From positions 124,001 to 188,000 of the forward strand of contig QQUE01000007.1 in assembly GCA_008501765.1 (NCBI GenBank): 64,000 bases of DNA, written 5' to 3'. Under the pieces are notes generated by a model. It was not told the DNA's origin. It did no database searches and saw only the letters and a program-made list of their open reading frames with translations. Source of the DNA: Calditrichota bacterium. GTDB taxonomy: Bacteria > Zhuqueibacterota > Zhuqueibacteria > Zhuqueibacterales > Geothermadaptataceae. Below are positions 50,283 through 56,477 of the stretch, in pieces (position 1 is the first letter of the stretch; every line of letters begins with the position of its first letter). A program made the position numbers and the translations under genes.

Positions 50283-52601
50283 TTATTTTCGGATAACGGC
50301 AATTTTGCCAACGCCCGATTCCCCATTTTCAGTATAACCAACAAAAAAGTAAATACCACTACCCACAAGTTGATCGTCCTCATCCCGGCCATCCCATTCG
50401 GGAATGGTGCCTGAAAAATCACCCGGTTCGAAATCCCGTACAACTTCTCCGTTTGATGTAAATATTTTTATGCCCGAAAAAGCCATCAGGTTGCCAAATT
50501 TGAAAGTATTTCCGGATCCATCGAGGAGAAAAGGGTTGGGAAAACCGGATATTTGTGAGAAATCACTTTTAGGCGTGGAGAACGGTGTACTCAATATTGA
50601 GAGCCCTTGCGTCGTTGCAATGTAAACATCACCATTGACAGAATTAAAAGCAAAGTCTTTGATGTCATTGCTGACAATTGGACTGTTATCCGTGGTGTAA
50701 TGTGTTAACCGGTTGTTTTCCGGACCAATAACAGTAATGCCACTGCTGGTGCCGATCCATTTATTATTAGCGGCATCAATTTTGATAACTTTGATATCCG
50801 TGCTGATCAATTTATCCCCGCCCAAAATTCCAATAAATTGGTTAACATTGCCTGACAACCAAAAATTGAGGCCTTCCGGTGTGCCAAACCACATTGTCCC
50901 ATCCTGATCCTGGGCCACTGTTCGAACATCCAATGACAACAAACCCTCGTCGGTATTAAATCCCTGTGAATAATTGTCATCCGTTTTGTCTGTGAGTGTA
51001 TTGTTGTGAACGACGACACCAACGCCATTTCCAGGATGACCAGCATGCACTCCCCCGCTCCCGTACCAAATCCACCCCGGCCGTCGTAGATCATCGACAA
51101 TCGAATGTATATGCGGTGAGCGAATGCCTTCAGCGAGCGAAAAATAGGACCAGGAGTCCAGGGTTGAGTTCACCACTGCAAGCGGCCTGCCTGATGCGGG
51201 AATAAAATTTGATATCCATATATTTCCGGAAGCGTCTTGCATGATTTCATCAACAACGACAAAATCACTGCTTGCAGCCGTTGATATCGGCGATAATCTC
51301 TCGTTCTCGTGATTAAAAACCTGTGCGGAATAATTATCCGGATTACCGCTAACAACAAATATCCCGTCACCCCAGTGGCCAAACCAGACACGATTTTGCT
51401 GATCCACAATTACTTTCCGAAAATCACCCTTGCCGAACACATCCGAATCTTCGAAATTAAACCACCCTTTTTCTTCGTGGTACGCCATAATGCCCTGCGC
51501 AGCGACCCACAAATATCCTGAATCGATGTCATAGGCAATGCTATTAAAAGTTTTGGTTTTCGGTCCGTCCGGTGAATACGTAATCCATGTTTCTTCACCT
51601 TCGTTAAACTGAGCTAAAGCAAACGGGGATGTTCTTAAATCTTTGGCAACAAATCCAACCCATAAATCATTTTCAATGTGCTTTATTTTTTTAATAATAT
51701 TGTCGGAATCAATGACGGGTGGGATACGCGTCCAGGTTTGTAAATCACTGGTGAAATAAATGTCAGTTGCAGATGCAGCGTAGAGAACTTCACTTTCGGC
51801 TGTCTTTTTAACACTCAGCGAAATGATGTTTTTAGCTGGCAGCGGGCCACTAAAATCTATGAGCCCAGAACTATTTTCCTGCGCAATTCCAGCGTTTGTG
51901 GCGATCAAAATTTTATCATCAAAAACAGCCAAATCCTGAATTTTATTTGAAGGGAGACCATCGGCAGTTGTGTAGGATTGCCAACTTTGTGGCGCTTTTA
52001 AATTAGGTAAATTTCGATCTGCTTTTCCAAGCCCGTTATTGGTTGCTGCATATATAAAATTTTCGAATAAAAAAGTTTGTGTCACTGGAATTTCTTCGGG
52101 GATGTCTTCACCAAGCTGGCGGTAAATTTCCTTCGATTCCTGACGGTCGATGCGGTATTCACTTATGCCCACATTGAGCGAAACGAACATCGTGTCACCT
52201 GCCGATGTCATGTCGTAAATCTGATTTCCCTCAAATACAGCGATAATTTCAACAATTTCCCGGGAAGATACGTCAAAAATATGGATCAAACCATTTGTTT
52301 GCGCCACCCATACCCGGTTCGATTTATCAACGGCCACTGATGAAACGTCATTCGAAGATAAACCGCTCGTATTGGTAAAAGCCTGATATGCGTCGGATTC
52401 AAAATTGTAGAGGAGTAAACCGCCGGTTGTCGCCCCCCACAATGTACCATCGGCCTCTATAAACTGGATTACTTCCCGCATTGCAGTGAAAGTTTTCCAT
52501 TTATTCAACTGGCCGAGTAAAGTATTTGAAAATAGATTTAACAGAATAAACAGGAATAAAAATAGAGTGCCATTTTTTTTAACCAGAAAAAATTGTGACA
52601 T
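50283..52601 (-). CDS. Secreted two-component-propeller-type protein with C-terminal sorting domain
   Basis: A 772-residue exported protein. A signal peptide (about 12-31) is followed by many Reg_prop-like blades, with units such as DGTLWGATTGGLLLYN, KSNRVWVAQTNGLIHIFD and DGTMWFGTPEGLNFW. The C-terminal region (about 685-772) contains FPNPFLLDG, IKIFTSNGEVVRDF, WDGRDEDDQLVGSGIYFF: an FlgD-Ig/type IX-like sorting domain. It is therefore probably a cell-surface or secreted protein rather than a sensor kinase; no histidine kinase domain is attached. It starts 2 bases after ribH and ends 5 bases before recN. Confidence 0.85.
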   Translation of the reverse strand: MSQFFLVKKNGTLFLFLFILLNLFSNTLLGQLNKWKTFTAMREVIQFIEADGTLWGATTGGLLLYNFESDAYQAFTNTSGLSSNDVSSVAVDKSNRVWVAQTNGLIHIFDVSSREIVEIIAVFEGNQIYDMTSAGDTMFVSLNVGISEYRIDRQESKEIYRQLGEDIPEEIPVTQTFLFENFIYAATNNGLGKADRNLPNLKAPQSWQSYTTADGLPSNKIQDLAVFDDKILIATNAGIAQENSSGLIDFSGPLPAKNIISLSVKKTAESEVLYAASATDIYFTSDLQTWTRIPPVIDSDNIIKKIKHIENDLWVGFVAKDLRTSPFALAQFNEGEETWITYSPDGPKTKTFNSIAYDIDSGYLWVAAQGIMAYHEEKGWFNFEDSDVFGKGDFRKVIVDQQNRVWFGHWGDGIFVVSGNPDNYSAQVFNHENERLSPISTAASSDFVVVDEIMQDASGNIWISNFIPASGRPLAVVNSTLDSWSYFSLAEGIRSPHIHSIVDDLRRPGWIWYGSGGVHAGHPGNGVGVVVHNNTLTDKTDDNYSQGFNTDEGLLSLDVRTVAQDQDGTMWFGTPEGLNFWLSGNVNQFIGILGGDKLISTDIKVIKIDAANNKWIGTSSGITVIGPENNRLTHYTTDNSPIVSNDIKDFAFNSVNGDVYIATTQGLSILSTPFSTPKSDFSQISGFPNPFLLDGSGNTFKFGNLMAFSGIKIFTSNGEVVRDFEPGDFSGTIPEWDGRDEDDQLVGSGIYFFVGYTENGESGVGKIAVIRK

Positions 52602-52603
52602 AT

Positions 52604-53080
52604 TTATTTTGTTTTCCCTTCTATATTATCACACAAATTGACCATCTCAATGGCGGCTAACGCAGCATCCCATCCTTTGTTCCCGGCTTTTGTGCCTGCC
52701 CGTTCAATCGCTTGCTCGATGGTATCGGCTGTAATGATACCAAAAGTTACCGGGATGCCCGATTTCAGTGTAAGGTGCCCAATTCCCTTTGTGACTTCAG
52801 ATGCAATGTAATCGAAATGGGGTGTAGCTCCCCGAATCAGGACGCCTAAGGCGATCACAGCATCAAACTTGTTTGCATCAATCAATTTTGATACGGCGAG
52901 AGGTATTTCGAATGATCCCGGTACACGAGCCACCGATATATCGTCCATGTTAGCACCATGCCGCTTTAAACAATCCAGCGCACCGTTTAAAATTTGATCG
53001 CCTAAAAAATTGTTAAATCGCCCTATAACAATAGCATATTTTTTCCCTTTTGCAACAAGATTTCCTTCCAGAAATTTCAT
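52604..53080 (-). CDS. ribH: 6,7-dimethyl-8-ribityllumazine synthase
   Basis: A 158-residue enzyme of normal length that condenses 5-amino-6-ribitylaminouracil with 3,4-dihydroxybutanone phosphate. Conserved segments are [43 protein letters not shown] and the [13 protein letters not shown] end. AAGGAAG precedes the ATG. Confidence 0.97.
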
Positions 53081-53130: not shown

Positions 53131-54336
53131 TTAAATCAAATGTCCCAATTTTTCTTTTTTGGTGCGCAAATAGTTTTGATTAAAATCAGTGGGCGGGATT
53201 TCAAGTGGCAGCCTCTCCGTGACTTCGACGCCGGCCGCTTGCAAACCACTTATTTTTTTGGGATTATTTGTGAGCAATTTCACTTTTTTAATACCGAGAT
53301 AAAATAAAACCTGGGCTGCAATACCATAATGGCGCAAATCGGCTTTAAAACCCAATTCTTCGTTCGCTTCAACCGTGTCAAGACCCTGTTCCTGCAATCG
53401 ATAAGCTTTGATTTTGTTTATCAACCCAATACCCCGCCCCTCCTGGCGCAGGTATAAAATGACACCCTTGCCTTCATTTTCAATTATTTCGAGCGCTTTT
53501 GCCAATTGTTGTCCACAATCACAGCGGCTGGAACCGAAAACATCGCCTGTCAGGCATTCCGAATGCAAGCGTACAACTGTTTCATCTTCCGAAGTGAACT
53601 CCCCTTTTGTAATTGCCACGAGTTCATCTTTGAATATTTTTGTTGTAAATAATTTCAGGGTGAACTGGCCAAATTTCGTTGGAAACTTGACTTCTTCCGC
53701 CAGTTGAATTAACAGTTCGGTACGTCTTCGGTACTCAATCAAATCCGCAATTGTGATCAATTTGAGATTGTGTTTTTCAGCAATTTGAAAAAGGCGGGGC
53801 AATCTGGCCATCGTACCGTCATCATCCATTATTTCACATAAAATTCCAGCTTGCGATGAAAATCCGGCAATTCGGGCGAGGTCTGTGACTGCCTCTGTAT
53901 GACCGCGGCGTTCCAGCACGCCCCCGGTCGCTGCACGTAATGGGAAAATATGCCCGGGTCGCGCCAAATCACCCGGTTTGGAGTTTTTGTCCACCAAAAC
54001 TTTTACAGTCTGTGCCCTGTCTGATGCCGAAATTCCAGTTGTTGTCTCTGCTACGGCATCTACTGAAACCGTGAAATTTGTGCCGAGAGACGCTGTGTTT
54101 TGCGACACCATCGATTGCAGATTAAGTTCATCGAGACGATCCGCCGTCATCGGTGTGCAAATGAGCCCGCGACCGTGTGTCGCCATGAAATTTATAGCTG
54201 CCGGTGTTACCTTTTCTGCAGCCATTATAAAATCACCCTCATTTTCCCTGTCCTCATCATCCACGACTATAATGATTCGTCCCTCGCGAAAATCATCGAT
54301 AGCTTCTTCAATTGTATTAAATGGCGCTGATTGCAC
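53131..54336 (-). CDS. ribBA: Bifunctional 3,4-dihydroxybutanone-4-phosphate synthase / GTP cyclohydrolase II
   Basis: A 401-residue fusion making both riboflavin precursors. The RibB half (1-200) has DDEDRENEGDF near 26-36 and RRGHTEAVTDLARIAG; the RibA half (about 205-401) has the zinc cluster C-L-T-G-D-V-F-G-S-S-R-C-D-C and RQEGRGIGLINKI. GTG start at 54336, directly after the ribE TGA; the Shine-Dalgarno GGAGGA lies inside ribE. The RibA half keeps all three Cys ligands. Confidence 0.97.
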   Translation of the reverse strand: MQSAPFNTIEEAIDDFREGRIIIVVDDEDRENEGDFIMAAEKVTPAAINFMATHGRGLICTPMTADRLDELNLQSMVSQNTASLGTNFTVSVDAVAETTTGISASDRAQTVKVLVDKNSKPGDLARPGHIFPLRAATGGVLERRGHTEAVTDLARIAGFSSQAGILCEIMDDDGTMARLPRLFQIAEKHNLKLITIADLIEYRRRTELLIQLAEEVKFPTKFGQFTLKLFTTKIFKDELVAITKGEFTSEDETVVRLHSECLTGDVFGSSRCDCGQQLAKALEIIENEGKGVILYLRQEGRGIGLINKIKAYRLQEQGLDTVEANEELGFKADLRHYGIAAQVLFYLGIKKVKLLTNNPKKISGLQAAGVEVTERLPLEIPPTDFNQNYLRTKKEKLGHLI

Positions 54337-54975
54337 TCAATCCTCCATTTTTATTTTAAATTGTGAAAAAAATTCCGGTTTGTTGATTGCCGGCTCCAGC
54401 AAATTACAGGCATATTTTCCCAGCATATCTGTCTCAATATTCACTTTGGCACCAATTTTTAAATGGCCCAATGTCGTGACCGCTAACGTATGTGGAATTA
54501 AGGCGATTTGAATTATCTCATTTTTAATCGTGGCAATCGTTAAACTACAACCATCAATGGAAATAGATCCTTTAGGAATAATATACTTGCGTAAATCAGG
54601 TGGGATTTTAATTGAAAGCCGTTTTCCGCCGTGCTGCTGTTCAAAGTTCGTGACCGTGCCCATGGCATCCACATGTCCCTGGACAAAATGCCCGCCAAGC
54701 CGGGAATCCGCCCGCAGTGCTCTTTCGAGATTTACTTTCTGTCCGACATAAAGTGAACCTAATGTTGTCACTTTTAATGTCTCTTCGACGGCCTCTACTT
54801 CAAAAGTTGAATTCTCAATATTGATCACAGTCAAGCATGTTCCGTTGATCGCTATGCTGTCATCTATTTTTAGTTGGCTGAAAACCAGGTTCGCGGCAAC
54901 TGATAGTCGTCGGGCTCCACGGCTTTGGCTGATGTTTTTTATTTCGCCGATTTCTTCGACAAGACCTGTGAACAT
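54337..54975 (-). CDS. ribE: Riboflavin synthase alpha chain
   Basis: A 212-residue enzyme that dismutates two lumazine molecules to give riboflavin. It has two similar lumazine-binding repeats, MFTGLVEEIGEI with NGTCLTV in the first, and GHFVQGHVDAMGTV with DGCSLTI in the second. Normal length. It starts 15 bases after ribD, with GGAAAAA upstream. Confidence 0.96.
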   Translation of the reverse strand: MFTGLVEEIGEIKNISQSRGARRLSVAANLVFSQLKIDDSIAINGTCLTVINIENSTFEVEAVEETLKVTTLGSLYVGQKVNLERALRADSRLGGHFVQGHVDAMGTVTNFEQQHGGKRLSIKIPPDLRKYIIPKGSISIDGCSLTIATIKNEIIQIALIPHTLAVTTLGHLKIGAKVNIETDMLGKYACNLLEPAINKPEFFSQFKIKMED

Positions 54976-54990
54976 AATTTTTCCTTAATT

Positions 54991-56067
54991 TTAATCCCAA
55001 TCAATTGTTGCCCTAAACAGCATATCATCGGCGCTTTGCGACCAGGTCTGATCGCGAAATCTGAGCGGAGCGCTGGCAGAATATCCCTCAATATCGAGTG
55101 CGGACAGGCCCTTGCCGAATAATTTTGGCGCGATAAAAAGGAGCAATTCATCCGCGCATTTTTGCTGCATAAACGAACTAAATATGCGGCTCCCCCCTTC
55201 AACCAGCACGTGCGCGATTTCCATTTCACCCAAATTTTTCAGCACTTCATTCAGTTCAAAATGCAGGTTTGGCTCGCAATCGCAAAAATAAAGATGAACT
55301 CCGTTCTTTTCCAGTTTAGAAATTGCATCGTCGTTTTTACGGCAAACGCTGGTAAAAACAATTGTTCGCTGCTTATTTTCATCAGTATAAAGTTGTGAAT
55401 CTACAGATGTTTGCAGCGCAGGATCGAGAACGATTCGCCATGGCTGCTGCATAACTTTACGATTACGTATCGTCAACTTCGGATCGTCTGAACAAACAGT
55501 GCCCGCACCGACGAGCACCGCACCTGCTGTAAATCGTAAATTTTGCACAGATTGCCGGGAAAAAGTGCCTGTTATCCATTGTGAGTTATTATTTGTATCA
55601 GCAATTTTACCATCCAAAGTTTGCGCAATTTTTACAGAGACATAGGGTAATCCAGTGGAAATATATTTTATAAATGCACGGTTCATTTTATGTGCTTCGT
55701 AATTCAATAGACCTGTTTTTACCTCGATTCCTGCAGCTGCTAATGCAGCGATTCCTTTGCCGGCAACTTTTGGATTTGGGTCTTCCATGGCGACAAAAAC
55801 TTTTTTAATTCCAGATTTAATAATTGCAGCCGTGCACGGCGGGGTTTTGCCATAATGAGCACAGGGTTCAAGCGTTACGTACATCGTGGAGTTTTCTGCC
55901 TTTGGCCCAGCCTCTCGCAATGCGTTGATTTCAGCATGGTCGGCACCAAATTTCTGGTGATAACCCTGGCCAATTTTTTGATTTTCTTTGACGATAACAC
56001 AACCGACCACCGGATTTGGCAGCACATTCCCTTCGCCGTTTTTTGCAAGATCGAGGGCGACTTGCAT
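54991..56067 (-). CDS. ribD: Bifunctional diaminohydroxyphosphoribosylaminopyrimidine deaminase / reductase
   Basis: A 358-residue fusion of deaminase and reductase for riboflavin synthesis. The deaminase zinc site is HAEINAL with PCAHYGKTPPC; the reductase half starts near VKIAQTLDGKIA. The frame is open to a TTG at 56169, but that stretch encodes the riboswitch terminator hairpin, so I prefer the ATG at 56067 (MQVALDLAKNG), with AGAGAAG upstream. A TTTTGGAG just after the terminator might instead serve a rare ATC start at 56079, which would give the usual E-K-F before the helix. First gene of the operon, controlled by the FMN riboswitch. Confidence 0.9.
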   Translation of the reverse strand: MQVALDLAKNGEGNVLPNPVVGCVIVKENQKIGQGYHQKFGADHAEINALREAGPKAENSTMYVTLEPCAHYGKTPPCTAAIIKSGIKKVFVAMEDPNPKVAGKGIAALAAAGIEVKTGLLNYEAHKMNRAFIKYISTGLPYVSVKIAQTLDGKIADTNNNSQWITGTFSRQSVQNLRFTAGAVLVGAGTVCSDDPKLTIRNRKVMQQPWRIVLDPALQTSVDSQLYTDENKQRTIVFTSVCRKNDDAISKLEKNGVHLYFCDCEPNLHFELNEVLKNLGEMEIAHVLVEGGSRIFSSFMQQKCADELLLFIAPKLFGKGLSALDIEGYSASAPLRFRDQTWSQSADDMLFRATIDWD

Positions 56068-56099
56068 AAATTTCTTCTCTAATTCGATTGGTTTGCTCC

Positions 56100-56133
56100 A
56101 AAAAAAATGCCCCGGAAAATTATCCAGGGCATT
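56100..56133 (-). terminator. Intrinsic terminator of the FMN riboswitch (expression platform)
   Basis: On the minus strand AATGCCCTGGA (complement of 56123-56133) pairs with TCCGGGGCATT (complement of 56106-56116), 11 bp with one G-U, loop TAATTT, then eight U at 56100-56107. It lies between the riboswitch and the ribD start. Ten bases of its 5' arm (complement of 56123-56132) are complementary to the riboswitch 5' segment at 56403-56412, so the two structures are mutually exclusive. Confidence 0.85.
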
Positions 56134-56289
56134 GAAATATTTTAAATAATATACTCTTAGTTTATGCAACAGGCAGATAACTAAACCTGATGCTTAATCT
56201 CAATATAATAAAGCATTTTATTAATTACTTATATTGATAAAAAACAATTAAAAATGAATTTGTTAACCATTTATTTTTAATATAAACTC

Positions 56290-56418
56290 TTGGTCTTCTC
56301 CCATCCGGGCTTTCACCGTCGGTGTCTGAATTACACAGACTCAACCTTTATTAAAATTCAATTAAGGGTCGTGGACTTTTACCACCGGCCTGGAATTTCA
56401 CCATGCCCTGAAGACGCT
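56290..56418 (-). promoter_or_regulatory. FMN riboswitch (RFN element)
   Basis: The minus strand contains, in order, GTCTTCAGGGCATGGTGAAA, TTCCAGGCCGGTGGTAAAAG, a variable hairpin, then ACCGACGGTGAAAGCCCGGA and TGGGAGAAGACC; these are the conserved strands of the RFN aptamer, with P1 closing as GTCTTC/GAAGAC. It is followed by the terminator at 56100-56133. FMN binding should favour the terminator and switch off ribD-ribE-ribBA-ribH and perhaps the two genes beyond. Confidence 0.95.
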
Positions 56419-56477
56419 CGAAATTTTATTTTAGCTTTTTAAATCATTCCCTTTCATTGATGCCTGTGATAAAACTA

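What the first reader, a model, noticed from the sequence alone, without database searches (positions are those of the whole stretch)
56100..56418. FMN riboswitch with a readable terminator/antiterminator switch
The RFN aptamer is clear. Downstream is an 11-bp terminator with eight U. Its 5' arm (56123-56132) is complementary over 10 bases to the aptamer 5' strand (56403-56412), so without FMN the aptamer strand can pair with the terminator arm and let transcription pass. This is the same logic as in Bacillus ribD but with P1/P2-strand bases taken directly. The terminator also disproves the long N-terminus of ribD.
Basis: partly seen in the sequence, partly recalled or inferred. Interest (0 to 1): 0.6.

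Follow-up and report, generated by a model that had tools for sequence, protein, structure and literature searches.

The report
Ordinary FMN riboswitch controlling riboflavin genes

Summary
There is a strong FMN aptamer at 56419-56289(-) (RF00050, 106.4 bits). A terminator hairpin follows at 56133-56106 with a run of eight U, and there is a gapless 10-pair match between aptamer strand 56412-56403 and terminator 5' arm 56132-56123. Folding supports a kinetic switch. When the transcript ends at the 5' arm, the antiterminator is formed (P=1.00). Once the 3' arm is made, the terminator is favoured. Downstream lie ribD-ribE-ribBA-ribH.

The pairing is supported by evolution. In a genus-mate with unalignable spacer DNA, the aptamer strand and the terminator 5' arm are unchanged. 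Across 48 distinct loci, aptamer A always faces U (12/12), while G faces C (28) or U (7).

The claimed contrast with Bacillus is not supported. The same aptamer strand (P1 end plus J1/2) is the published FMN 'switching sequence', and a Halanaerobiales leader has the same pairing. This is a new member of a known kind, in candidate division KSB1.

The long ribD N-terminus is indeed unlikely. In both genus members, however, the best-placed start is an Ile codon (AUC/AUU) behind GGAG, not an AUG: a modest open lead. Nothing was tested experimentally.

The parts
56428..56457 (-). Possible promoter: ATGAAA - 18 nt - TAAAAT, ending 8 nt before the aptamer
   Evidence: Consensus scan, 9 of 12 matches; 3 sites found against 3.9 expected by chance, so weak on its own. 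Several relatives show TATATT-type boxes in the same place just upstream of the aptamer (sequences).
56289..56419 (-). FMN riboswitch aptamer (RFN element, RF00050)
   Evidence: cmscan 106.4 bits, full model length. Outer two P1 positions are not standard pairs (G56417-A56291, C56416-C56292), leaving a 6-bp P1.
56403..56412 (-). Switching strand UUCAGGGCAU (3 nt P1, 6 nt J1/2, 1 nt P2) that forms the antiterminator with the terminator 5' arm
   Evidence: 10 pairs, -15.1 kcal/mol; position within the aptamer from the alignment; unchanged in G001; covariation.
56134..56288 (-). 155-nt AT-rich spacer between aptamer and terminator
   Evidence: Length; own fold not better than shuffles (z -1.03); not meaningfully alignable with the 235-nt spacer of G001.
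56106..56133 (-). Intrinsic terminator hairpin, 11 pairs, 6-nt loop; 5' arm 56132-56123 is the antiterminator partner
   Evidence: 5' arm unchanged and 3' arm changed between window and G001.
56100..56107 (-). U tract of the terminator (8 U, two of them also paired in the stem when U56106-56107 are counted in it)
   Evidence: Sequence.
56096..56099 (-). GGAG, probable ribosome binding site of ribD
   Evidence: Sequence; kept in G001 as GGGAG while the surroundings diverged.
56086..56088 (-). AUC codon, candidate non-AUG start of ribD, 7 nt after GGAG; the next in-frame AUG is 56067-56065
   Evidence: same codon position (-25 from PxVG) and same distance (17 nt) from the terminator stem as AUU in G001. 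Inference, not shown.
54991..56088 (-). ribD (bifunctional deaminase/reductase)
   Evidence: TIGR00326, 356.7 bits; B. subtilis-type RibD structure 2b3z, E 1.7e-91.
54337..54975 (-). ribE (riboflavin synthase)
   Evidence: NF006767/TIGR00187.
53131..54336 (-). ribBA (DHBP synthase / GTP cyclohydrolase II)
   Evidence: NF006803, 592.2 bits, cut-off 569.
52604..53080 (-). ribH (lumazine synthase)
   Evidence: TIGR00114, 184.9 bits.

Best explanation
It is an FMN riboswitch that turns the ribD-ribE-ribBA-ribH operon off by transcription termination. Without FMN, the 5' strand of the aptamer (end of P1 plus J1/2) pairs with the terminator 5' arm as it is transcribed, so the polymerase passes before the terminator can form. 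With FMN bound, P1 and J1/2 are locked in the aptamer, the 5' arm is free, the hairpin forms and transcription stops at the U tract. The decision is kinetic, because at equilibrium the terminator wins even without ligand. Shown here: aptamer, terminator, complementarity, conservation and covariation of the long-range pair, predicted folds of both states, and the operon. Inferred: FMN binding, direction of control, kinetic control, the promoter.
For: Aptamer. Folding of the growing RNA: with the transcript ending at 56123 the antiterminator fold is the overall minimum (-70.6 kcal/mol); with the terminator complete, -80.4 (free) against -73.5 (antiterminator). The same two-step behaviour is predicted for most leaders tested: antiterminator P>0.5 in 33 of 36 cut at the 5' arm, terminator P>0.5 in 28 of 36 at full length. 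Genus-mate G001 keeps aptamer strand and 5' arm (TTCAATGCCCTGGAT) while the spacer is unrelated and RibD is only 55% identical. Covariation at the position before GGG: A faces U in 12 of 12, G faces C in 28 and U in 7, other 1; Fisher p about 1e-6, not corrected for relatedness. Own aptamer-terminator pairs score 19.7 against 17.05 +/- 0.32 when terminators are permuted among aptamers. Operon identity.
Against: In the equilibrium fold of the full leader the terminator has P=1.00 without ligand, so the switch works only if kinetics protect the antiterminator; not tested. The 155-nt spacer makes the two strands meet late. The Vienna model leaves out aptamer tertiary structure and FMN. The covariation p-value ignores phylogeny.
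Confidence: 0.93

Rival explanations
1. Dual control: the same hairpin also limits translation in transcripts that escape termination, because the ribosome binding site lies in or right next to it.
For: In many genomes of the phylum the ribD AUG starts 5-9 nt after the terminator stem, with AGGG or GGGG in the 3' arm; in the window GGAG begins directly after the U tract. Dual platforms are a named category in Barrick and Breaker 2007 (PMC2258182).
Against: In the window the GGAG itself is outside the hairpin, so any effect would be by crowding only.
Confidence: 0.3
2. The aptamer and the terminator are independent: the terminator ends upstream transcription and the 10-base match is chance or a side effect of GC-rich arms.
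For: Runs of 10 pairs including G-U are found in 58 of 1000 shuffles.
Against: Covariation, permutation test, island of conservation in G001, and the same arrangement in dozens of leaders.
Confidence: 0.03
3. A decayed riboswitch that no longer responds to FMN.
For: P1 has two non-standard outer positions and the spacer is unusually long.
Against: Aptamer scores 106 bits over the full model; terminator and antiterminator intact and conserved in G001.
Confidence: 0.04

Closest known systems
FMN riboswitch of Fusobacterium nucleatum (PMC7573352; organism from memory of PDB 3F2Q)
   Same: Switching sequence at the P1/J1-2 boundary (residues 6-11) forms a competing stem in the apo state; FMN stabilises P1.
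   Different: Different phylum; sequence and spacer differ. Its expression platform was not compared here base by base.
Bacillus subtilis ribD FMN riboswitch
   Same: FMN-dependent, kinetically driven termination upstream of the riboflavin operon (PMC11476745). From memory: aptamer UUCGGGGC also matches the terminator arm GCCCCGAA; I could not fetch that sequence here.
   Different: Window has CAGGGCAU instead of CGGGGCA, and a longer spacer.
FMN leader of a Halanaerobiales genome (L087)
   Same: Aptamer UCUUCAGGGCAUGG and terminator AAUGCCCUG, almost letter for letter the window's switch.
   Different: Bacillota, other spacer and terminator loop.
ribD leaders of other genomes of the window's phylum (G001, G003, G005, G015, G064 and others)
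   Same: Same aptamer strand to terminator arm pairing upstream of ribD.
   Different: Spacers 12-110 nt (G001: 235); many place the likely ribosome site in the terminator 3' arm.

Membership tests
FMN riboswitch (RF00050) | Covariance-model match above gathering score | tested here: met
   106.4 bits against 66.2, full length
FMN riboswitch (RF00050) | Controls riboflavin synthesis or transport genes | tested here: met
   ribD-ribE-ribBA-ribH directly downstream; position only, control itself not tested
FMN riboswitch (RF00050) | Binds FMN | not testable with these tools
   Needs in-line probing or ITC
Transcription-attenuating (terminator/antiterminator) riboswitch | Intrinsic terminator between aptamer and gene | tested here: met
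Transcription-attenuating (terminator/antiterminator) riboswitch | Alternative pairing that excludes both P1 and the terminator, conserved in evolution | tested here: met
Transcription-attenuating (terminator/antiterminator) riboswitch | Ligand-dependent change in termination | not testable with these tools
   Needs in vitro transcription
[quoted passage not shown]
   Window GGAG 56099-56096 lies just outside the hairpin; appears met in several relatives

The most novel reading that the evidence does not exclude
In this genus ribD starts at an isoleucine codon (AUC in the window at 56088-56086, AUU in G001) behind a GGAG placed right after the terminator U tract, so that the operon's first enzyme has a built-in weak, non-AUG start in addition to the riboswitch.
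Probability: 0.4. Interest if true: 0.4.

Novelty: new member of a known kind. Interest (0 to 1): 0.2.

Why it matters
It extends FMN-controlled transcription attenuation to an uncultured phylum; an earlier survey had found transcription attenuation dominant in Firmicutes and translation control more common elsewhere (PMC2258182). It also gives clear covariation evidence that FMN aptamer strands pair directly with terminator arms. For specialists this confirms expectation rather than surprises. The possible Ile-codon start of ribD would be a minor oddity worth one test.

Tried and rejected
A species search with the window RibD in genome contigs found nothing; the organism was placed instead through an aptamer DNA pattern. 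Vitreschak 2002 and Winkler 2002 are not held in the library, so the B. subtilis arrangement rests on reviews, the F. nucleatum paper and memory. Idea that the long spacer is a structured domain: rejected for the window (z -1.03); G001's different spacer gives z -2.78, but the two do not align. Idea of an internal promoter in the spacer: not supported; the one further minus-strand hit lies across the terminator's 5' arm and loop (56146-56119), and the site count is at chance level. An extension of the antiterminator by 6 pairs into the aptamer's P2 loop (UGAAAU with AUUUCA) is possible in the window but imperfect in G001 and absent in G003/G005, so it was not claimed. SD statistics on the window were modest: 10 of 36 first ATGs against 17 of 286 internal ones. 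Terminators of L086, L089 and L092-L094 found by my simple hairpin scan did not match the aptamer; whether those use another platform was not followed.

Full report
WHAT IS THERE. On the minus strand, Rfam's FMN model matches 56419-56289 over its whole length with 106.4 bits; it is the only FMN riboswitch in the 5.9-Mb genome. The first two P1 positions are not standard pairs, leaving a 6-bp P1. After a 155-nt AT-rich spacer comes a hairpin of 11 pairs (56133-56123 with 56116-56106, -18.6 kcal/mol) and U8 at 56107-56100; the last two stem pairs use two of those U. Then come GGAG (56099-56096), ribD, ribE, ribBA and ribH.

THE SWITCH PAIR. Aptamer UUCAGGGCAU (56412-56403) pairs without a gap with AUGCCCUGGA (56132-56123): 9 Watson-Crick pairs and one G-U, -15.1 kcal/mol. 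By the Rfam alignment these ten bases are three of P1, six of J1/2 and one of P2. By shuffling, the score is rare (1 of 1000), but a 10-pair run with G-U is not (58 of 1000), so the sequence alone does not settle it.

BOTH STATES FOLDED. With the transcript ending at 56123 the unconstrained minimum contains the antiterminator (-70.6 kcal/mol). When the 3' arm is complete the terminator fold wins (-80.4 against -73.5). Pairing probabilities give antiterminator 1.00 at the 5'-arm stage and terminator 1.00 at full length. Of 36 leaders (this one and 35 from other genomes), 33 show P>0.5 for the antiterminator at the 5'-arm stage, and 28 P>0.5 for the terminator at full length. The equilibrium preference for the terminator without ligand means that the mechanism must be kinetic, which is how the B. 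subtilis ribD switch is described (PMC11476745).

EVOLUTIONARY TEST. In the genus-mate G001 (RibD 55% identical), the spacer is unrelated and 80 nt longer, but TTCAATGCCCTGGAT with its hairpin, and the aptamer strand, are kept; the 3' arm changed while the 5' arm did not, as expected if the 5' arm has two partners. In 48 distinct aptamer-terminator pairs from many bacteria, the base before GGG in the aptamer and the facing base of the terminator arm go together: A-U 12, G-C 28, G-U 7, other 1, and A-C none. The sister genus (G003, G005) has the G-U intermediate. Permuting terminators among aptamers lowers the mean score from 19.7 to 17.05 (sd 0.32). The register was set on the CCC run, and the p-value (1e-6) ignores relatedness.

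HOW ORDINARY IT IS. The same pairing occurs in nearly all leaders with a strong terminator in the first sample, and, over a shorter stretch, in most of the second sample of relatives of G132. A named Halanaerobiales genome has practically the same letters (L087). A structural paper on the FMN riboswitch names residues 6-11, including J1/2, as the switching sequence of the competing stem (PMC7573352). Transcription attenuation was reported as dominant in Firmicutes and less common in most other groups (PMC2258182), so its presence here is a range extension.

THE START OF ribD. The TTG at 56169 would put the terminator inside the gene. G001 has an in-frame TGA nine codons before the conserved Met, relatives mostly start 24-27 codons before the PxVG motif, and TIGR00326 matches from Met 56067, so the long form is unlikely. 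However, the acidic residue four before, and the aromatic residue just before, that Met are shared by the window, G001 and most RibD sequences, and RibD of 2b3z aligns from two residues after the window's Ile, which suggests that translation begins upstream of it. In both genus members the only codon at the usual place is Ile (AUC in the window, AUU in G001), 17 nt after the terminator stem and 6-7 nt after GGAG. This is an inference from two genomes.

VERDICT. Observation confirmed; mechanism very likely as described; the claim of a departure from the Gram-positive scheme is not supported; ordinary member of a known class.

Noticed in passing
window 56099-56065 (-) and L030 (G001): ribD seems to lack a usual start codon at the usual place; GGAG is followed 6-7 nt later by AUC (window) or AUU (G001), and the next AUG is the conserved internal Met.
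   Followed up: partly
G003, G005, G065, G067, G069, G078, G079, G081 leaders: ribD AUG lies only 5-9 nt after the terminator stem and the best SD-like motif (AGGG/GGGG) is in the terminator 3' arm: likely combined transcription and translation control.
   Followed up: partly
window 56288-56134; G001 spacer; G003/G005 spacers: Aptamer-to-terminator spacer is 155, 235 and 107-110 nt in this family against 12-78 nt in nearly all other leaders with a matching terminator; cause unknown.
   Followed up: partly
L031 (G004), aptamer 212 nt: Same-family FMN aptamer has an insertion near P2, and no terminator was found downstream; possibly decayed or translational.
   Followed up: no
family f2 (G007-G014): The sister family in the same order has no FMN riboswitch in 8 genomes, most of high completeness; the element is patchy in the class (11 of 63 genomes).
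   Followed up: no
L016 (G038): FMN riboswitch with a terminator lies upstream of an ABC-transporter ATPase-like gene, not ribD; perhaps a riboflavin transporter (judged by eye from the sequence).
   Followed up: no
window 50283-52601 (-): Protein matches NCBIfam PorZ (type IX secretion, NF052228) just above the cut-off (271.6 against 260), directly after ribH.
   Followed up: no
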